From Babesia bovis T2Bo (lineage: Eukaryota > Apicomplexa > Aconoidasida > Piroplasmida > Babesiidae), in assembly GCF_000165395.2 (NCBI RefSeq), contig NW_026261571.1:1-64000 (forward strand): 64,000 nt of DNA. Direction: 5' to 3'. The first letter of the stretch is position 1; each line of letters begins with the position of its first letter. Made by a program: the position numbers and the translations under genes. The notes under the pieces were generated by a model that worked only from the letters and a program-made list of their open reading frames with translations, did not search any database and was not told the origin of the DNA. Of this stretch, positions 9,565 through 19,550 are shown in pieces.

Positions 9565-10404
9565 CTATTTTGCATGGTCTGTCCTGATAATTCTGTCAAC
9601 CAATCCGTATTGTAGGCTTTCTTCAGCTGACATGAACTGTTCACGTTCTAAATCCTTAGCTATGTTGTCCAAAGGCTGATTAGTTACTTGGCTGTATAAT
9701 TTCTGCAAGATTCGCTTCATATTAAGCATATATTGAGCCTGGCTTCTGATTTGCTCTGCTGACCCTTCCAGTGTCCCAGCGGGTTGATGCATAACAACTC
9801 TTGAATGAGGTAGAGCTGAGCGCATCCCCGGTGTTCCAGAGGCCAGCAGTAGCGAAGCCGTTGCACTGCAGAAGCCAACATTTATTGTTGCAATTTTAGA
9901 CTTCAGGTGTTTAATCGTATCATATAATGTTATACCAGCGGTAGATGGGCCACCCTGGCTATTGATATACAACGTGATTGGTTTCTCATTGGAGTCGCTA
10001 TCGAGACATAGAAGTGTGCCGATGATCATATTAGTGTAGCTCTCATCGAGAGATTGACTGACAAATAGAATACGTTCTCTATATAACCTTGTATGAATAT
10101 CATGGAATTCAGATCGCTGGGTTCCAGGTATTTTGTACTCCACGAGAGGCACACCTAAAGGCGTCATAAACAACTTGTCGGTTAAATAGTTGCTGCAAGG
10201 CTTGTAATACCTGTTTCTACGTTCTATTTTAAAAGTGGCAATAAATCCCTACAAAATCATTACATCAGTATAGAGATCATGCAATAGCAATGGTCCATAA
10301 AGTATCTGAAGTAACCTTTGTCATGACCGTGCATTTCCACATTAACATACCTGTAGAAGCACTATGATAGTTAATATTCCGGTGATACAATGCATCGTTG
10401 CCAT
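9565..10404 (-). CDS. ClpR-like inactive ClpP protease subunit, apicoplast-type leader, copy 1
   Basis: Two exons, complement(join(9565..10248,10351..10404)), 245 residues. Exon 1 encodes an 18-residue hydrophobic signal (MATMHCITGILTIIVLLQ); exon 2 begins with a basic, Asn/Tyr-rich stretch, together forming a bipartite apicoplast-type leader before the Clp core. The core aligns with ClpP along its length (INSQGGPSTAG, SRVVMHQPAG, MSAEESLQYGLVD). The nucleophile Ser of the GxAASMG motif is Ala (GFCSATAS, about residue 147). The His is kept (HQP, ~172) and the Asp of ERD is Glu (EREQF, ~221). Loss of the Ser is the mark of ClpR, a non-catalytic ring subunit described in Plasmodium apicoplasts. 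A partner catalytic ClpP should lie elsewhere in the genome. Confidence 0.82.
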
Positions 10405-10488
10405 ATGCTACGTGGAGAATGATCAACATTGTCAGTTACTTATCGTAGCCGAAAGACCAACTAAGGTAGGTGTTCTAACAAAATAACA

Positions 10489-10671
10489 ATGCTTTATTCT
10501 TCGGCATTCGACATAACGAGGAAGGGCCACAAAATAGGACAATTACGTGCTATTGGCGCTCGACGCTTTGCAAGGTATTTCACTGACGTATATAATGTAC
10601 ACACATTCTGTTACATAAAAGACCGTCGTTTTAATACCAAATATGGAATATATGATGTAGGAGCATTATAG
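10489..10671 (+). CDS. Small hypothetical ORF, 60 residues, copy 1
   Basis: ATG at 10489 in an A-rich context (ACAATG), stop TAG at 10669-10671. The product is basic and Arg/Tyr-rich (RAIGARRFARYF, then KDRRFNTKYG), with no signal or membrane segment. I do not recognise it. It is conserved without change in unit 2, but so is all neighbouring non-coding DNA, so conservation is no evidence for coding here. It could be a small ribosomal-type protein, an exon, or chance. Confidence 0.3.
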   Translation: MLYSSAFDITRKGHKIGQLRAIGARRFARYFTDVYNVHTFCYIKDRRFNTKYGIYDVGAL

Positions 10672-11131
10672 TGAAAAAGGAAAGTGTTTTCGGTATTAGT
10701 ATATTTAGCTACAATAATCTCATAATGATCATCCTTTGTTCGACATTTTAAGAAAATGGAGTGTATATCTAACAAATAATGGGCATCTAACCAGAAAGCA
10801 TTGAAGTGAAATCAAATGAACTGTGTACTAGGTAGATTCCACTGTGCATAGAGTTTTCACATCCATGGGACACATAAGCAGGTTAAATAGCATGAAAAAA
10901 GAAATGATGTTTATTATTCAACCACACTAGCTGAAAATCGTAATAAATACCTGTATACTTGGTAAACAGAAGGGGAAACATCATCGGTCACCTAACGTGT
11001 TATCTTCATTGTTGGGTTCGTCCGACGCATGCCCATCCCATAGTACTGAAGGCATACCTTATTCTTTGCAAGAATCCCATAGGATTCTCTAGCCTTGAGG
11101 TATCCCGCCATTTGATTTGCAAATATATATA
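10672..11131. other. Intergenic, upstream of kinase copy 1
   Basis: Holds the distal promoter of the kinase gene. A minus-strand ORF (10992-11198, 68 codons, ending TNPTMKITR) overlaps the likely promoter. Its composition is plausible, but nothing else supports it, so I do not call it a gene. Confidence 0.4.
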
Positions 11132-11173
11132 AGCGCTGCGCTATTGTTCGCACACGAACATTATTCCGTGCAC
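11132..11173 (+). promoter_or_regulatory. Palindrome cluster upstream of kinase copy 1
   Basis: Just after a TATATATA run are AGCGC-T-GCGCT (11132-11142), GTTCG-CACA-CGAAC (11146-11159) and GTGCAC (11168-11173). They are 85-126 bp upstream of the kinase ATG and identical in unit 2 (18060-18101). GTGCA is a known ApiAP2 recognition core in Plasmodium; applying it here is inference. Confidence 0.35.
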
Positions 11174-11257
11174 TCACTTGTTTTAGACAGAGTTTCACAC
11201 AGTGTCATTTGACCCTATTTTTCTTTTTAATTTTTTGGGAAAACATTTGTCTTCAAG

Positions 11258-12277
11258 ATGGCAGACGTCATTATGCATCACGGAAATGCTTCAGTCTTGT
11301 TCATTGGACACCCAATGATGGACATGTTTGCACGTGTTGACGATTCCGTTGTGGAGCGTTTCTCTGTGCCCAAGGGTGAATCCAACATTGTTAGCCAAGA
11401 AGTGTTCGATGAGTTGAACAGTATGATCAAGCTTGAGAAGGTTACTCCAGGTGGATTGTCTAGCACTATGGCTTTTGCTTACCTTGGTGGTATCGTCAGC
11501 TTCTTCGGTATTGTGGGTGACGACGCCTATGGTAAACAATTTTACAAGGCTGTAAAGTCTCAAGGAGTAAAAATGTACACTCCGTTTAGGAAAGGCGTAC
11601 CAACAAGCAGGCTTTTGTCCCTTATTACTCCTGACCATGAACGTACTATGTACCTATCTATGGGTGCTTCCCACACGCTCACTGTAAACGATATTAAGCC
11701 TAGTATTATGGACAAGCACGACTACTTTGCAGTCAATGGATTCGTTTTTTCTGGTCCTGACCAAGTTATCTTTACGAACATGATGGTTGGAGAGTCCCTT
11801 CGTCGTGGAAAGGGTGTTATCACCCTCATTGCCAATCCTTTCTGTGTTCGTGTCAACGGTCACTTCTTGAAGCCAATTATTGACAGATCTGAATACGTTT
11901 CTGGTAACATAGAAGAGTACTCTAACTTGTACAACATGCACGACAGGTCCGAGTTGCGCAAGTACCTTGCTTCTCGTACCGCTGGTGAAACCCCTATTAA
12001 CAAGGCTATCATTTTGACCCTGGGACCAGAGGGCGCTATCATCTTCCACCACGGTGAAGAATTTTTCATCCCCGCTGCCGAATGCGATGTTGTTGACACC
12101 ACCGGTGCTGGTGACTTCTTCGCCGGTTCCGTGCTCTACGGTATGCTTAACGGCTACACTTTGCAAAAATCTGGAGAATTCGCTCGTGTTATTGTCGGTG
12201 ATCTCATCTCTCATATCGGTTGCACTTTGAGCCCAGAAGTTCGCGCCAAGGTTGACGCTATCAAGATGGAAGCTTAA
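11258..12277 (+). CDS. pfkB-family (adenosine-kinase-like) sugar/nucleoside kinase, copy 1
   Basis: Single exon, 339 residues, ATG at 11258. pfkB kinases phosphorylate ribose-type hydroxyls; adenosine kinase would make AMP in purine salvage, but the substrate is inferred. Seen: an N-x-x-E motif (NIEE) and the pfkB signature DTTGAGDFFAG at ~280-290 with the catalytic Asp at 286, so the phosphate-transfer site is intact. Odd: the substrate-binding Gly-Gly loop reads PGGLSSTMAFAYLGG, two residues shorter than the same loop in copy 2 and without the conserved Asn. Codons are strongly biased (C-ending, few rare codons), as in a highly expressed gene. Mosaic relation to copy 2: bases 11293-11329 and 11397-11623 are strongly diverged, while 11330-11396, 11624-11704 and a long run after ~11833 are identical. 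Confidence 0.78.
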   Translation: MADVIMHHGNASVLFIGHPMMDMFARVDDSVVERFSVPKGESNIVSQEVFDELNSMIKLEKVTPGGLSSTMAFAYLGGIVSFFGIVGDDAYGKQFYKAVKSQGVKMYTPFRKGVPTSRLLSLITPDHERTMYLSMGASHTLTVNDIKPSIMDKHDYFAVNGFVFSGPDQVIFTNMMVGESLRRGKGVITLIANPFCVRVNGHFLKPIIDRSEYVSGNIEEYSNLYNMHDRSELRKYLASRTAGETPINKAIILTLGPEGAIIFHHGEEFFIPAAECDVVDTTGAGDFFAGSVLYGMLNGYTLQKSGEFARVIVGDLISHIGCTLSPEVRAKVDAIKMEA

Positions 12278-12601
12278 ACTTTTACTTTTTCAAAATTAGC
12301 TATATGTTTCCTATAATTACATTTTTTGCAATATACATCTGACATAGGGCATGTAATATTAATATTTTGTGCATCTCTACATTTATTGTCATTAAATCCA
12401 AGTGTTTAGGGTAGGCGATTGAAATATTGATGCATTATTTTCAATTATTAACCACATTGTAAAAAGATGTTTATGTTTTCCACAAAGTTTCGTCCCTTTT
12501 TGTAAATCTCTGAAAACTCATCAGTTTTCCTTTACACAATATTCAATAGCCATGCCCTAACATCTATGAAAAAATAACAATACACTGATACTAATAATAT
12601 T
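12278..12601. other. Kinase 3' flank and unique spacer between units
   Basis: 12278-12422 is shared with the 3' flank of copy 2, except for a diverged patch at about 12338-12378. 12423-12601 (~179 bp) is unique to this place and abuts the left edge of unit 2. No gene is seen. Confidence 0.7.
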
Positions 12602-13939
12602 AAATTTCCAGACATGGTTTGTGTATTGCTTTGAAGTGTTGTTTTTCTAAAATTTCCACTTCGGCAACAACAATCTTTTCATTGTTGTGTATCAATATGA
12701 GTAGTACAATCTGTATCATTCCCGAGATCATCCCAATGAAGTTAGGGGCAATTACTATGTAATCCCATATGATGAACCCGTAACACAAAGTGAAAAAAGA
12801 TCCAATAAAGTTAGCCAACGATATTTCCGTCGGCATCGCTGAAGTACTCCTTTGTTTCATAATTTCTCTTATGGAGAAGAGCGGTGCGATATAAGAGAAA
12901 GCCTGGATAGATCCACCAAAAAGGCCAATGAAGTTGAGATAACTCGTAGTATCTAAACCTATATAACTCATTCCAAGAACCATGCAGCATATAGCAGAAA
13001 TCTTATAGAATAAGTGAAGAATGCGCATCTGATGTGAATCCTGGCAGTACCGGTGAAAAATCAGAATATACGAGCAGCTAAGGACAAAACCTATGACAAA
13101 ACATTAACATCAAATTAAATTAAGGCGCTATACTAGATAAAGTACTCAAGGAATTGCAAAATATTAAATACTAGCATAATGAAAGACGATGCCTCTATCA
13201 AATTAGACAATATGAATCAAATATGATATATATAGGATAGCAATCATATGGACTTACTTGGAATGCTAGATAGGATGATAACCGTATTGTAGCAAATCAG
13301 TCCATATAGCGACCATAAGAAATTAGCAAAGGCAACTGTGACAAAATTCAAGGTCTTCAAATTGCCCGTTGATTTGTTATAACGCACAGTCATAACAGTA
13401 TGCAATGGTATAAGTTGCGTGATTATTGAAGATAAAACAGTTCCACAGCCAATGAGGTAGTTGAAATCGGTCTGTATCATTTCTCTTGCCCACACCATAA
13501 GCCTTCCAACAAGTGGAGTATCACCCGGATTGTCATCATTAGCTTCTAAAGCCTCATCATGTGTAACTATTGGCTGCCTTTGCACTACTTCCGAGCTATT
13601 AATCGATGTTGAGGATTTTGTCATGTCCGGGGCAGTTTCAACTATGTCATTATTTTCACTAGAATCGTCAACAAATGCAAGCTTGGGTTTTGCTTCCCCC
13701 GTCATCACAGTCTTTTGTGTTTCCTTTGCATCTGCAATACTCATGTCACGAATAATCGGTGAACTTGTTATAGGCTTCAGAGGTTCTGTATGTTCAGGAC
13801 TGGGGGAAACGACATTAAGCAGTATCCCGTCCCCGATAATATTCTCATCATTATTAACATCATCTTGACAAATAACGGTTCCTCTAATTAATGCGATGCC
13901 AAGCAGCCAAAATTGCGCCAACCGCCACTTACGCGGCAT
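12600..13939 (-). CDS. SWEET/MtN3-family sugar transporter, copy 2
   Basis: Complement(join(12600..13090,13258..13939)), 390 residues, identical in protein sequence to copy 1 (two MtN3 repeats, signal-like N-terminus, acidic extension). The stop is TAA rather than TGA because the last two bases of the codon (12600-12601) come from the unique spacer and only the first coding-strand base lies in the duplicated block. The breakpoint thus falls inside the stop codon, yet a stop is preserved. The terminator and polyadenylation region of this copy is therefore different DNA from that of copy 1. Confidence 0.8.
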
Positions 13940-13940
13940 A

Positions 13941-13954
13941 TTGGCGCGCGGGAA
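13941..13954. promoter_or_regulatory. GC-rich motif between divergent starts, copy 2
   Basis: Same TTGGCGCGCGGGAA element as at 7013-7026, between the divergent SWEET and SNAPC1-like starts. Function is inferred only. Confidence 0.3.
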
Positions 13955-14117
13955 GAAAACACTCCCCTTATCACTACTTTTTTAACGACGAACCGACGTA
14001 TTTGCAAAAGAAAGAAAAAATACACACCACTATATCTATAGCTACTGCACATTTATTGAGAGTTGACGACCGAATCTGGTATACCTGCTGCCCAATCTAT
14101 GCGTGTTGTACACATTT

Positions 14118-15218
14118 ATGGAGATCCTTCCTAATATTCCTGGAATAGAACAACATGTATTTGGAGACATATACTTTGGTTACTTTGTACCTACCGTATT
14201 GCGTGGTCGTTCAGATGCGTTCCAGCGTGATATCAATGCCATACTGTCTGAATGGGTTTTGCTTTCTTTGAATGGTGGATTTGATAAGTTTATTGAGGTA
14301 TGCGGACAATTAGTTACGCTTTATGTTAGTATATATGTCACTTAAATGATATATGTTCAAATGTTTAAGTAATTCTTCGCAGAGAGATAGCGACTTTGGT
14401 TTGAAATTGTTTGGCACCATATTCCGAGAACTGTGCTTTTCAAAGATTTTGACAACCCATCCATTAGAATCGATTAGTACTGTGTGGGAAGTATTTTGGG
14501 GTGTTTTGGCAGGTGGGTGGGATGTTCACATTGTGGAACAATCATTGGCAGATTGTTTTAACAGTACAATACGTGAAGATGAGGACCAGGTTTGGTTACT
14601 TCGTAGAAGTGGCTGCATTTACATAATGTTTTATCTATATCATTGTCAGTCGAATTCCAACATCCTTCCCATTCCGCTTGCAGTTGGTAAGATCTTACTT
14701 CGATGCGTACAACGTTATATAGAGACCATAACGAATTGCGTTGATACCTGTTTTGTAATATCACGAAAGTTCTCTATTTCAACAGTATTAGAGGTGTTCA
14801 TCTTCCTTCTGAGGAGACACTGTATTCGTGTTTGTCTGATCGACGGACTCCAATATATTCCGCAGGATAGGACTGGGAGGCCAATGGGTTCGGCGATTAA
14901 CGAGGACTACAATTGAACCAAGGTATGAGTTATTCTTAAACGTATATTAAGGTAATATCCCTAAATTGCGAATTTATGTAACATTTTTATCAAGTAGTAC
15001 CATTGAACTGGATGACATCCTTTCTAACTTACGTGTCACTATTGTGCAGCGTGTAAAGCTGGATCGTGTTTTCTTAAACTTTAATGCTTTGAATATAAAC
15101 ATACTTAGATATTGTTCCTAACTGCAAATGTGCTGCCTTCTCCACTAAAGCTACGCCAATAACATCTGGTGTATTAAAAAGAAATACTTTGCCAACTAGA
15201 GGCACCATAAAGTGGTAA
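14118..15218 (+). CDS. SNAPC1 (SNAP43)-like protein, copy 2
   Basis: Same structure as copy 1: exon 1 14118-14297, exon 2 from 14383, short downstream introns, final stop TAA probably at 15216-15218. The only difference seen from copy 1 within the gene is G to A at 15158. In the reading frame I favour for the last exon this is synonymous (CCG to CCA, Pro); in the alternative frame it would change Arg to Gln. That weakly supports the longer, spliced 3' end. Function, as for copy 1, is a tentative snRNA-activating-complex subunit. Confidence 0.5.
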
Positions 15219-15302
15219 GTTTTTTGATCGCTTTGTTAAAATTCCGCTGATAGACTTGATCAATTTGTCGTGATTATATCCTTGAAGATTCTTTTGGTCA
15301 AC

Positions 15303-16196
15303 ATGGTACACTTCGGTCAAGTGATAATGGGACCACCCGGTTCGGGCAAATCTACTTACTGCGCAGGTGCGAAACAGCTTCTGACAAGATTAGGACGTCC
15401 TACAGCAATAATTAATTTAGATCCACAGGCAAACGTATTTGAGTTACCGTATAAACCGGATATTGATATCCGCGAATTAGTGGATTGTTGTAATGTGGCC
15501 AATACGTATGATTTGGGGCCAAATGCATCCTTGTTGTTTGCAATGGACTACCTGCTTGCAAATTTGGATTGGCTTATACAGAAGGTACATTCATTGGGCA
15601 ATGTATACCTCCTTTACGATATACCAGGGCAAATAGAGTTATTTACCCATCACACATCTCTCAAGAAAATAGTAGATACTCTCCAGTGTAGGCATGATCA
15701 TATACTTACCGGGGTCAATCTAATAGATTCTACACTCTGTGCCGATCCATACAAGTATGTTGCAGCCTTATTGGCATCGTTGAGTTGTCAAATTTTTATA
15801 CATCTACCTCATGTTAACGTCCTAAGCAAATTGGATGTGCTATGTATGATATCGCAAGATTTGGCTTTCAATCTAGAATTTTACACTTCCGTAGCTTCTT
15901 TAGAAGAATTATTATGTCATTTCAAAAACTCGTTTTCGTATCGGCATGATGAAAGTTTCGAAAGGTTCGTTAGAGCCCTATGTGAGTTGGTTGATGATTT
16001 TAATCTCATATCCTTTGCCACACTGGATGTTCAAAACGTTACATCCATGATTAAATTGTTAAGAGTCATAGACAAAGCAATGGGCTACCTAACAACAGGA
16101 GGCATAGATGATTATAATATAGATGAGTATTTAGAAATTGATTACAGAGCCAGCCTATGTGTTGAAACTACAAAAAATAAATTTCTTGAGGGATAA
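15303..16196 (+). CDS. GPN2: GPN-loop GTPase 2 (GPN2), copy 2
   Basis: Identical 297-residue product to copy 1, with P-loop GPPGSGKST and the Gly-Pro-Asn loop intact. Both copies look functional; neither has a frameshift or premature stop. A T at 15266, 37 bp upstream of the ATG, is the only nearby difference. Confidence 0.88.
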   Translation: MVHFGQVIMGPPGSGKSTYCAGAKQLLTRLGRPTAIINLDPQANVFELPYKPDIDIRELVDCCNVANTYDLGPNASLLFAMDYLLANLDWLIQKVHSLGNVYLLYDIPGQIELFTHHTSLKKIVDTLQCRHDHILTGVNLIDSTLCADPYKYVAALLASLSCQIFIHLPHVNVLSKLDVLCMISQDLAFNLEFYTSVASLEELLCHFKNSFSYRHDESFERFVRALCELVDDFNLISFATLDVQNVTSMIKLLRVIDKAMGYLTTGGIDDYNIDEYLEIDYRASLCVETTKNKFLEG

Positions 16197-16492
16197 TAAG
16201 GACATGTTTATTCACAGAGTTTTGGTGTAGTATATCGGGTATACTCCTTGTTACACTGATTCAAAAAAGGGTATTTGCCGATCGTACTGAAAACTCCATC
16301 TAAGTAACACGGTGATAAGTTTTACCTAGATATCATACACGCCAAAATATAGTTAATAATGAAAACGGTATGATCACAATTTATTTATCCAGTGATTGTA
16401 CATGTATGTAAATTCGAACGTTCTAACTATACAAGAAACCAGGAATTATTTTTTAGTGGACGTTCGGCAAAGTTGCGTCTGTTATATGTATG

Positions 16493-17332
16493 CTATTTTG
16501 CATGGTCTGTCCTGATAATTCTGTCAACCAATCCGTATTGTAGGCTTTCTTCAGCTGACATGAACTGTTCACGTTCTAAATCCTTAGCTATGTTGTCCAA
16601 AGGCTGATTAGTTACTTGGCTGTATAATTTCTGCAAGATTCGCTTCATATTAAGCATATATTGAGCCTGGCTTCTGATTTGCTCTGCTGACCCTTCCAGT
16701 GTCCCAGCGGGTTGATGCATAACAACTCTTGAATGAGGTAGAGCTGAGCGCATCCCCGGTGTTCCAGAGGCCAGCAGTAGCGAAGCCGTTGCACTGCAGA
16801 AGCCAACATTTATTGTTGCAATTTTAGACTTCAGGTGTTTAATCGTATCATATAATGTTATACCAGCGGTAGATGGGCCACCCTGGCTATTGATATACAA
16901 CGTGATTGGTTTCTCATTGGAGTCGCTATCGAGACATAGAAGTGTGCCGATGATCATATTAGTGTAGCTCTCATCGAGAGATTGACTGACAAATAGAATA
17001 CGTTCTCTATATAACCTTGTATGAATATCATGGAATTCAGATCGCTGGGTTCCAGGTATTTTGTACTCCACGAGAGGCACACCTAAAGGCGTCATAAACA
17101 ACTTGTCGGTTAAATAGTTGCTGCAAGGCTTGTAATACCTGTTTCTACGTTCTATTTTAAAAGTGGCAATAAATCCCTACAAAATCATTACATCAGTATA
17201 GAGATCATGCAATAGCAATGGTCCATAAAGTATCTGAAGTAACCTTTGTCATGACCGTGCATTTCCACATTAACATACCTGTAGAAGCACTATGATAGTT
17301 AATATTCCGGTGATACAATGCATCGTTGCCAT
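16493..17332 (-). CDS. ClpR-like inactive ClpP subunit, copy 2
   Basis: Complement(join(16493..17176,17279..17332)), 245 residues, identical to copy 1, including the hydrophobic leader exon, the Ala in place of the catalytic Ser and the Glu in place of the catalytic Asp. Two intact copies would double the dose of a non-catalytic subunit unless one is silent. Confidence 0.82.
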
Positions 17333-17416
17333 ATGCTACGTGGAGAATGATCAACATTGTCAGTTACTTATCGTAGCCGAAAGACCAACTAAGGTAGGTG
17401 TTCTAACAAAATAACA

Positions 17417-17599
17417 ATGCTTTATTCTTCGGCATTCGACATAACGAGGAAGGGCCACAAAATAGGACAATTACGTGCTATTGGCGCTCGACGCTTTGCA
17501 AGGTATTTCACTGACGTATATAATGTACACACATTCTGTTACATAAAAGACCGTCGTTTTAATACCAAATATGGAATATATGATGTAGGAGCATTATAG
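17417..17599 (+). CDS. Small hypothetical ORF, 60 residues, copy 2
   Basis: Identical to the ORF at 10489-10671. Unrecognised, with weak evidence for coding. The downstream intergenic stretch 17600-18059 holds the kinase promoter and differs from unit 1 only at 17684. Confidence 0.3.
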   Translation: MLYSSAFDITRKGHKIGQLRAIGARRFARYFTDVYNVHTFCYIKDRRFNTKYGIYDVGAL

Positions 17600-18059
17600 T
17601 GAAAAAGGAAAGTGTTTTCGGTATTAGTATATTTAGCTACAATAATCTCATAATGATCATCCTTTGTTCGACATTTTAAGAAAGTGGAGTGTATATCTAA
17701 CAAATAATGGGCATCTAACCAGAAAGCATTGAAGTGAAATCAAATGAACTGTGTACTAGGTAGATTCCACTGTGCATAGAGTTTTCACATCCATGGGACA
17801 CATAAGCAGGTTAAATAGCATGAAAAAAGAAATGATGTTTATTATTCAACCACACTAGCTGAAAATCGTAATAAATACCTGTATACTTGGTAAACAGAAG
17901 GGGAAACATCATCGGTCACCTAACGTGTTATCTTCATTGTTGGGTTCGTCCGACGCATGCCCATCCCATAGTACTGAAGGCATACCTTATTCTTTGCAAG
18001 AATCCCATAGGATTCTCTAGCCTTGAGGTATCCCGCCATTTGATTTGCAAATATATATA

Positions 18060-18101
18060 AGCGCTGCGCTATTGTTCGCACACGAACATTATTCCGTGCA
18101 C
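18060..18101 (+). promoter_or_regulatory. Palindrome cluster upstream of kinase copy 2
   Basis: Same AGCGC/GCGCT, GTTCG/CGAAC and GTGCAC elements as in unit 1, at the same distance from the ATG. Both kinases therefore probably share expression control at the promoter. Confidence 0.35.
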
Positions 18102-18185
18102 TCACTTGTTTTAGACAGAGTTTCACACAGTGTCATTTGACCCTATTTTTCTTTTTAATTTTTTGGGAAAACATTTGTCTTCAAG

Positions 18186-19211
18186 ATGGCAGACGTCATT
18201 ATGCATCACGGAAATGCTTCGATGCTCATTTCTGCTCATCCCTTGATGGAGATGTACGCACGTGTTGACGATTCCGTTGTGGAGCGTTTCTCTGTGCCCA
18301 AGGGTGAATCCAACATTGTTAGCCGAGAAGTATTTAATGAGTTAGAAAGGATTGTGGAGGTAGATAGAACGAGTCCTGCTGGTTCGTCGTGTAATACTGC
18401 GCTAGCTTATGCATATCTTGGTGGTATTGTTACTTTATTTGGTATCGTGGGTGATGACAAGGCTGGTAGAATTTACAGAGAGGAAATAAGTTCTCAGGGA
18501 GTTCAGTTGAAGACAACAGTAAGAAAAGGACATCCCACCAGTAAGTTATACACTTTGATTACTCCTGACCATGAACGTACTATGTACCTATCTATGGGTG
18601 CTTCCCACACGCTCACTGTAAACGATATTAAGCCTAGTCTTATGGACAAGCACGACTACTACGCTGTCAATGGCTTCCTATTTGCTAATCCTGACCAAGT
18701 TATCTTTACGAACATGATGGTTGGAGAGTCCCTTCGTCGTGGAAAGGGTATTATCACCCTCATTGCTAATCCTTTCTGTGTTCGTGTCAACGGTCACTTC
18801 TTGAAGCCAATTATTGACAGATCTGAATACGTTTCTGGTAACATAGAAGAGTACTCTAACTTGTACAACATGCACGACAAATCTGAGTTGCGCAAGTACC
18901 TTGCTTCTCGTACCGCTGGTGAAACCCCTATTAACAAGGCTATCATTTTGACCATGGGACGAGAGGGTGCTATCATCTTCCACCACGGTGAAGAATTTTC
19001 AGTTCCCGCTGCCGAATGCAATGTTGTTGACACCACCGGTGCTGGTGACTTCTTCGCTGGTTCCGTGCTCTACGGTATGCTCAACGGCTACACTTTGAAA
19101 GCCGCCGGAGAGTTGGCTCGTGCTGTTGTCGGTGATCTCATCTCTCATATCGGTTGCACTTTGAGCCCAGAAGTTCGCGCCAAGGTTGACGCTATCAAGA
19201 TGGGAGCTTAA
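18186..19211 (+). CDS. pfkB-family (adenosine-kinase-like) kinase, copy 2
   Basis: Single exon, 341 residues. It shares its first 11 codons, several internal blocks and most of its C-terminal half with copy 1, but residues ~12-24 and ~47-122 are very different. The substrate loop here is PAGSSCNTALAYAYLGG, with the usual Gly and Asn (N70) of pfkB kinases that copy 1 lacks. NIEE and DTTGAGDFFAG (about 282-292, catalytic Asp 288) are intact. The diverged blocks use relaxed, A/T-rich codons (such as GAAAGG, GTAGATAGA), unlike the biased codons of the shared blocks. That suggests they came from a differently expressed paralogue by gene conversion. Of the two, this copy looks the more canonical enzyme. 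Confidence 0.8.
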   Translation: MADVIMHHGNASMLISAHPLMEMYARVDDSVVERFSVPKGESNIVSREVFNELERIVEVDRTSPAGSSCNTALAYAYLGGIVTLFGIVGDDKAGRIYREEISSQGVQLKTTVRKGHPTSKLYTLITPDHERTMYLSMGASHTLTVNDIKPSLMDKHDYYAVNGFLFANPDQVIFTNMMVGESLRRGKGIITLIANPFCVRVNGHFLKPIIDRSEYVSGNIEEYSNLYNMHDKSELRKYLASRTAGETPINKAIILTMGREGAIIFHHGEEFSVPAAECNVVDTTGAGDFFAGSVLYGMLNGYTLKAAGELARAVVGDLISHIGCTLSPEVRAKVDAIKMGA

Positions 19212-19550
19212 ACTTTTACCTTTTCAAAATTAGCTATATGTTTCCTATAATTACATTTTTTGCAATATATAGCTAACTTTTTTTTATAAAATCGTTATTT
19301 TGCGCATCTCTACATTTATTGTCATTAAATCCAAGTGTTTAGGGTAGGCGATTGAGAAAATTATATTTTGCTTTGTTGATTACTGGTGTAGGTATTTGAA
19401 TTAATTGTGGGATTGTTTAATATGTCGAGTTACTCATTCAATGTTTACTTAGAGCTGAGGGTTTTGTTGTTGCGAAATTATGTTGTGATGTCTTTTAGTC
19501 CATAGCATCTTACTTGTATTGTTTCGTTATTAGATATTTAGACAGTCATA
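19212..19550. other. Intergenic, right edge of the duplication
   Basis: The kinase 3' flank is shared with copy 1 up to ~19354; after that the sequence is unique. It is convergent with the UBA4-like gene. No gene is seen. Confidence 0.6.

What the first reader, a model, noticed from the sequence alone, without database searches (positions are those of the whole stretch)
11258..19211. Mosaic kinase pair: identical blocks alternating with highly diverged blocks
Between the two pfkB genes, runs such as 11330-11396 and 11624-11704 are base-for-base identical to copy 2, while 11293-11329 and 11397-11623 share little beyond protein-level similarity. Divergence is concentrated in the N-terminal lid and substrate region; the catalytic C-terminal half is nearly uniform. 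This is the footprint of patchwork gene conversion with selection keeping two different substrate-binding halves.
Basis: partly seen in the sequence, partly recalled or inferred. Interest (0 to 1): 0.75.

Follow-up and report, generated by a model that had tools for sequence, protein, structure and literature searches.

The report
Patchwork-converted tandem adenosine kinase genes
In a Babesia parasite genome, two neighbouring adenosine-kinase-like genes appear to have kept copying short pieces of DNA from each other while two stretches expected to shape the sugar-binding pocket stayed very different; this is a clear example of a known process, and whether the two enzymes prefer different substrates is untested.

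Summary
AK1 (11258-12277) and AK2 (18186-19211) are the only two pfkB matches in this 8.23-Mb genome, probably Babesia bovis. Runs 11330-11396 and 11624-11704 are identical. Blocks 11293-11329 and 11397-11623 are saturated at silent sites: 27 of 41 same-residue degenerate codons differ, against 0 of 56 in the identical blocks and 8 of 190 in the C half. In 184 other Babesia pairs the N blocks diverge only slightly more than the C half, so uneven constraint does not explain this; patchwork gene conversion does. Two separately recorded proteins carry the same two N blocks but swapped C-terminal letters.

Corrections: the C half is patchy, the patchwork enters non-coding 3' DNA, and the pair sits in a tandem repeat whose upstream 5.6 kb differs at 3 bases.

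Each copy breaks different near-invariant residues at the expected pocket (AK1 S67, N70; AK2 G17, D22, G65), so different substrates are plausible. Selection as the force keeping the blocks apart is inferred, not shown. A new example of a known kind.

The parts
5674..11292 (.). Upstream part of repeat unit A: SWEET-like exons (5672-6100 -, 6316-7011 -), unassigned + ORFs within 7175-7988, GPN-loop-type ATP-binding protein 8342-9268 +, ClpP 9565-10173 -, and the first 35 bp of AK1
   Evidence: Differs from 12602-18220 at 3 bases: 8230, 8338, 10756; Pfam MtN3_slv, ATP_bind_1, CLP_protease ('GPN-loop' is a recalled name; 7425-7985 matches SNAPC1 below its cut-off); found only twice in the genome
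12602..18220 (.). Same segment in repeat unit B, offset 6928
11258..12277 (+). AK1, pfkB-family adenosine-kinase-like gene, 339 aa
   Evidence: PF00294 109.8 bits; predicted fold nearest the rhizobial 3UBO/4K8P group
18186..19211 (+). AK2, pfkB-family adenosine-kinase-like gene, 341 aa
   Evidence: PF00294 127.7 bits; predicted fold nearest 3UBO; 97% to B. bovis S6CAJ7
11293..11329 (+). AK1 diverged block 1 (AK2: 18221-18257); holds the G17 and D22 positions
   Evidence: silent sites saturated
11330..11396 (+). Identical island 1, 67 bp (AK2: 18258-18324), residues about 25-46
11397..11623 (+). AK1 diverged block 2 (AK2: 18325-18557); holds the GGS..N motif; AK1 lacks 2 codons
   Evidence: pS 0.70, dS 2.0, dN 0.41
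11624..11704 (+). Identical island 2, 81 bp (AK2: 18558-18638)
11705..11754 (+). Diverged patch in the C half (AK2: 18639-18688); four of its replaced residues have AK2's letter in P0001
   Evidence: dS 0.60
12149..12191 (+). Diverged patch in the C half (AK2: 19083-19125); six of its replaced residues have AK1's letter in P0002
   Evidence: dS 0.27, dN 0.26
12278..12431 (.). AK1 3' flank, patchy against 19212-19364: identical 12287-12335 and 12371-12422 with a diverged patch between
12432..12601 (.). Spacer between AK1's 3' flank and the start of unit B; no second copy found in the genome, not alignable to 19365-19550

Best explanation
AK1 and AK2 are an old pair of adenosine-kinase-like paralogues, probably formed within this species' lineage. 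Short-tract gene conversion has overwritten parts of them: island 1, island 2, most of the C-terminal half and pieces of the 3' flank (read from the sequence pattern). Two blocks expected to form much of the substrate pocket have escaped for so long that their silent sites are saturated (saturation shown; pocket role inferred). Later, a 5.6-kb stretch from the SWEET-like gene to the first 35 bp of AK was copied or homogenised, so both genes now have the same upstream region (pattern shown; direction and mechanism inferred). My preferred mechanism is break repair started at AK2's 5' end, using the matching 5' end of AK1 as template, copying leftwards and ending by non-homologous joining at 5674/12602 (inferred). 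The result is two enzymes with the same 5' flank and nearly the same catalytic half but different nucleoside pockets, probably with different substrate preference or affinity (inferred, about 50 percent).
For: Silent differences 27/41 in diverged blocks, 0/56 in identical blocks, 8/190 in the C half; dS about 2 against 0 and 0.10. AK1-AK2 protein path is 0.91 in the N blocks and 0.085 in the C half, while paths to B. sp. Xinjiang are 1.06-1.23 and 0.73-0.74. C-minus-N identity is 0.43 for the pair; among 184 other pairs the mean is 0.08, sd 0.08, maximum 0.30. P0001 and P0002 match their own copy's N blocks fully (89/89 and 91/91 aligned residues), yet of 18 C-half sites that differ between AK1 and AK2, P0001 has AK2's letter at 5 and P0002 has AK1's letter at 7. 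The patchwork continues in non-coding DNA. Only 3 mismatches in 5674-11292. The copies break different near-invariant columns: AK1 S67 and N70; AK2 G17, D22 and G65.
Against: AK1 and AK2 are sisters in both the N-block tree (87/98, below the tool's threshold of 95 for a firm branch; only 3 of 19 inner branches of that tree are firm) and the C tree (the four B. bovis-like rows 100/100), so there is no topological conflict, only a large difference in depth. The order of events (old AK pair, later 5.6-kb copy) cannot be told from an old 6.9-kb tandem duplication that was later homogenised: the missing similarity of 12432-12601 to 19365-19550 fits either if the duplication is as old as the N blocks. 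No synteny in other species could be read.
Confidence: 0.82

Rival explanations
1. Conversion is as above, but the diverged blocks persist passively: once two stretches differ by about 40 percent, conversion can no longer pair there, so no selection for different substrates is needed. This rivals only the last clause of the best explanation.
For: Diverged islands also persist in the C half (11705-11754, 12149-12191) and in non-coding 3' DNA. The big block shows dN 0.41 with saturated dS, so no sign of positive selection.
Against: Island 1 (67 bp) is homogenised although diverged DNA flanks it on both sides. The copies break different near-invariant pocket columns, while no near-invariant C-half column differs between them; but the pocket columns lie inside the diverged blocks, so the two facts are not independent.
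Confidence: 0.45
2. Recent duplication followed by fast adaptive divergence of the N-terminal half only.
For: The flanks are nearly identical and the differences centre on the substrate region.
Against: Silent sites in the diverged blocks are saturated (dS about 2) while the 5.6-kb flank differs by 0.05 percent. The same N region evolves only a little faster than the C half in other Babesia pairs.
Confidence: 0.03
3. A third, divergent pfkB gene or an outside sequence donated the N block to one copy after a recent duplication.
For: Would give the same sharp edges; GC3 of AK2's diverged blocks (0.35) is lower than AK1's (0.48) and than both C halves (0.49-0.50).
Against: No third pfkB match in the genome; the two N blocks are each other's sisters in the tree (87/98).
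Confidence: 0.07
4. Assembly error created the mosaic.
For: Near-identical 5.6-kb repeats are easily misassembled.
Against: Both N blocks recur letter for letter in P0001 and P0002; P0002 is a separately recorded B. bovis protein. The two repeat copies differ at 3 bases and have different flanks. No reads were available to check the order.
Confidence: 0.04

Closest known systems
GOT1p1/GOT1p2 paralogues of Tigriopus californicus (PMC3728101, abstract and section list seen)
   Same: A metabolic-enzyme pair with regions of high divergence persisting beside apparent ongoing gene conversion, and haplotypes that move variation between copies
   Different: Animal transaminase; here a parasite nucleoside-kinase-like pair whose diverged blocks include expected pocket residues, within a 6.9-kb tandem repeat
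Segmental gene conversion of B. bovis ves genes (Al-Khedery and Allred 2006: title seen in reference lists of PMC4066756 and PMC4413850, of which passages were seen)
   Same: Same species by inference; mosaic genes by segmental conversion
   Different: ves genes are a large antigen family with a site of active transcription; here two metabolic genes
Adenosine kinase of Babesia canis rossi (Carret et al.; title seen in a reference list)
   Same: Babesia enzyme named adenosine kinase
   Different: Only the title was seen; its sequence was not compared
Sinorhizobium meliloti adenosine kinase, PDB 3UBO
   Same: Closest solved chain by sequence (105.7 bits for AK2, 104.6 for AK1) and first or second fold match
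   Different: About 26 percent identity; its D and GGS..N residues are intact in the printed alignment

Membership tests
PfkB/ribokinase-like kinases (PF00294) | Pfam profile above curated cut-off | tested here: met
   109.8 and 127.7 bits, cut-off 25.8
PfkB/ribokinase-like kinases (PF00294) | C-terminal DTTGAGD motif (anion hole and catalytic Asp; role recalled) | tested here: met
   VVDTTGAGDFFA in both copies
Adenosine kinase | Fold closest to solved adenosine kinases | tested here: met
   Foldseek ranks 1-31 of the 50 shown for AK1 and 1-33 for AK2 are adenosine kinases or the R. etli 'probable sugar kinase'. A shared fold shows no substrate.
Adenosine kinase | Ribose-holding Asp, GG pair and Asn (roles recalled; conservation tested) | tested here: inconclusive
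   AK1 has D22 and GG but lacks S67 and N70; AK2 has E22 and AG but keeps S67 and N70
Adenosine kinase | A curated NCBIfam equivalog at its cut-off | tested here: inconclusive
   22-23 NCBIfam models matched each copy, none at its cut-off; no adenosine kinase model is among those matched, and the library is made for bacteria and archaea
Adenosine kinase | ATP-dependent phosphorylation of adenosine | not testable with these tools
   no assay
Interlocus gene conversion | Tracts of silent-site identity beside saturated silent divergence in one gene pair | tested here: met
   27/41, 0/56 and 8/190
Interlocus gene conversion | Conflicting tree topology between tracts (a frequent sign, not an indispensable one) | tested here: inconclusive
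   No conflict seen: copies are sisters in both partitions and only depth differs; conversion within a lineage-specific pair need not give a conflict
Interlocus gene conversion | Patches shared between loci differ among isolates | tested here: inconclusive
   P0001 and P0002 show swapped letters, but source and chimerism are unchecked

The most novel reading that the evidence does not exclude
Babesia uses gene conversion to keep a shared catalytic half while holding apart alternative nucleoside pockets, as a natural modular enzyme system: in B. bovis two kinases with the same 5' flank and different pockets, and in B. caballi an independent case in which the same island (residues about 25-64) and the segment near 115-151 look homogenised between paralogue classes while the pocket motif between them is not. 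The B. caballi case is suggestive only: paralogue-like at 11 of 12 and 4 of 4 informative sites in the two segments, 0 of 3 between them and 8 of 15 elsewhere, but permutation P was 0.28 (runs) and 0.16 (scan).
Probability: 0.25. Interest if true: 0.6.

Novelty: new member of a known kind. Interest (0 to 1): 0.42.

Why it matters
An active purine salvage pathway is reported for B. bovis and reliance on it for B. divergens (PMC12386598, passages seen). If the two kinases accept different nucleosides, the pair would explain how a parasite with only two pfkB genes found widens its salvage. [quoted passage not shown]

Tried and rejected
Uneven protein constraint: rejected by silent sites and by comparison with other Babesia pairs. 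Third-paralogue donor: no third pfkB match. A pure 6.9-kb tandem duplication with a shared 3' tail: 12432-12601 and 19365-19550 do not align better than shuffles (local score 7, null mean 10.2); this does not exclude a duplication old enough to saturate. Babesia-wide enrichment of broken pocket columns over other near-invariant columns: not found when the columns are defined on 36 bacterial-like rows (15 of 80 cells against 77 of 464, P 0.63), though the Babesia pocket is more often broken than the bacterial one (4 of 180; P 1e-5). B. caballi mosaic: not significant on strict sites. Rfam: nothing at gathering threshold. Telomere-like repeat: one match with two mismatches; 25 of 100 shuffles had at least one.

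Rows left out: Bbigemina_d from the between-species window baseline as a very long branch. P0001, P0002, P0015, P0123 and P0124 were not in alignments A2/A3; P0124 was in no tree. Of rows P0016-P0120 (P0016-P0036, P0038-P0052) went into A2/A3 and 4 into the trees. One search listed 120 of 263 proteins. The third protein search scored only the 7996 candidates sharing most words and did not list some Babesia rows found earlier, so paralogue counts are lower bounds.

Literature: 'Babesia bovis + adenosine kinase', 'Babesia bovis + genome + segmental duplication', 'Babesia + adenosine kinase', 'Babesia + pfkB', 'Babesia bovis + tandem + gene conversion + kinase', 'adenosine kinase + gene conversion', 'Babesia + purine salvage + adenosine' and a general one on conversion and neofunctionalization (15 of 107 listed) showed no paper whose title or shown start of abstract describes this pair. 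A survey of apicomplexan segmental duplications that includes B. bovis (PMC4053351) has no occurrence of 'adenosine' or 'kinase' in its main text. The library holds open-licence papers only; supplements were not looked at.
Full report
What the window is. The window is the first 64 kb of contig C4 in an 8,234,832-base, 8-contig assembly. A Pfam PF00294 search found two matches in the genome, both in this pair; a DNA search with AK1 also found only the pair.

Check of the observation. The 67-bp and 81-bp runs are identical; the blocks 11293-11329 and 11397-11623 are not. Silent sites carry the weight, because protein constraint does not hold them. NG86 counts give pS above 1 in the first diverged block, pS 0.70 (dS 2.0) and pN 0.32 (dN 0.41) in the second, 0 silent differences over 41 silent sites in the three identical blocks, and dS 0.10 in the C half. 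At codons coding the same residue, silent differences are 27 of 41, 0 of 56 and 8 of 190 respectively; island 2 is in both of the last two sets. A scan statistic free of chosen boundaries gives 32.6 against at most 10.2 in 150 permutations. Two tests were not significant: the longest silent-identical run over the whole gene (P 0.13) and within the C half (P 0.97).

First, the C half is patchy: 11705-11754 has 4 silent and 6 replacement differences in 17 codons, and 12149-12191 has 2.5 and 7.5 in 15, while 11755-11944 has 1 and 1 in 63. Second, the pattern extends beyond the genes. The pair lies in a tandem repeat with offset 6928. From 5674 to 11292 there are 3 mismatches (8230, 8338, 10756), spanning SWEET-like, GPN-loop-type and ClpP genes; this segment was found only twice in the genome. 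The 3' flank has identical runs of 49 and 52 bases with a 35-base diverged patch between, and similarity ends near 12431/19364. The spacer 12432-12601 has no second copy in the genome and does not align to AK2's 3' DNA.

Conversion, not uneven constraint. The same N-block columns were compared across Babesia. AK1 and AK2 share 48 percent there and 92 percent in the C half; either copy against B. sp. Xinjiang or B. ovis shares 41-49 percent and 56-60 percent. The C-minus-N identity gap is 0.43 for the pair and 0.08 on average over 184 other pairs (sd 0.08, maximum 0.30). The two copies remain sisters in the N-block tree (87/98, below the tool's firm threshold, in a poorly resolved tree with 3 firm branches of 19) as in the C tree, so the paralogues probably arose within this lineage. 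There is therefore no topological conflict, only an about seven-fold difference in depth relative to B. sp. Xinjiang.

Exchange among records. P0001 and P0002 match AK1 and AK2 respectively over all aligned N-block residues, 89 of 89 and 91 of 91. In the C half, 18 sites differ between AK1 and AK2; P0001 carries AK2's letter at 5 (residues 157, 163, 165, 166 and 277 of AK1) and P0002 carries AK1's letter at 7 (152, 305, 306, 307, 310, 313 and 314 of AK2); P0002 also has two private changes. This is what exchange in both directions would leave. The caveat is that P0001's organism is not shown, and transcript assemblies can be chimeric.

Function. Both copies are predicted with high confidence (pLDDT 94.5 and 94.9) and are nearest to solved adenosine kinases, first the rhizobial ones (3UBO and its R. 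etli homologue). Of the columns at least 90 percent conserved among 50 relatives, AK1 breaks S67 and N70, AK2 breaks G17, D22 and G65, and both share one C-half change, A to S at 180/182; the first-Met column is ignored. The role of these residues in holding the ribose is recalled from solved adenosine kinases, not tested here. These columns lie inside the diverged blocks, so their difference is not independent evidence for selection. A wider claim that Babesia as a whole breaks pocket columns preferentially did not hold (P 0.63).

Mechanism and history. Short conversion tracts explain islands 1 and 2, the C half and the 3' runs. The 5.6-kb near-identity needs a separate, later event, either copying of the upstream block between two existing AK genes or a long homogenising tract in an older tandem duplication. 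I prefer the first because the DNA beyond 12431 and 19364 is unrelated, but saturation would hide an old relation, so this is open. With near-identical 5' flanks the two genes may be expressed alike (inference), leaving the protein pocket as the difference.

Selection or passive barrier. Diverged patches in the C half and in non-coding DNA show that islands can persist without substrate selection. The different broken pocket residues in each copy argue for function. I put the two near even odds.

Wider context. The protein searches list several AK-like proteins on contigs of one length in B. ovata (four, 3.1 Mb; a fifth on a 17-kb contig), B. bigemina (four, 2.5 Mb) and B. caballi (four, 1.0 Mb), and one cluster each in B. 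ovis, B. sp. Xinjiang, B. divergens and B. gibsoni; these are lower bounds, and that equal length means one contig is inferred. In B. caballi, three paralogues share island 1 at 86-95 percent while sharing 58-60 percent in the C half; the strict site test was not significant. B. ovata and B. bigemina pairs show a milder N/C contrast (0.27-0.30).

Verdict. Observation confirmed, conversion supported, selection unproven. It is a good example of a known process in a setting where a simple enzyme assay would be informative.

Noticed in passing
window 5674-11292 and 12602-18220: A 5.6-kb block with SWEET-like, GPN-loop-type and ClpP genes is present twice with only 3 differences, so these genes too are duplicated in this genome.
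   Followed up: partly
protein rows P0007, P0008, P0011-P0015, P0121-P0123: These Babesia AK-like proteins begin with a hydrophobic N-terminal extension that looks like a signal peptide (weakest in P0012), while the B. bovis copies, P0003-P0006, P0009 and P0010 do not (by eye and by hydropathy); secreted and cytosolic classes are possible.
   Followed up: partly
   Followed up: no
window 1-1678: A tandem repeat array with a 90-bp unit fills the start of the contig, just before an ORF at 1688-2965.
   Followed up: no
window 18221-18257 and 18325-18557: GC3 of AK2's diverged blocks is 0.35, against 0.48 in AK1's and 0.49-0.50 in both C halves.
   Followed up: no
window 5672-5674 and 12600-12602: The repeat's left edge falls inside the stop codon of the SWEET-like ORF, giving TGA in one copy and TAA in the other.
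   Followed up: no
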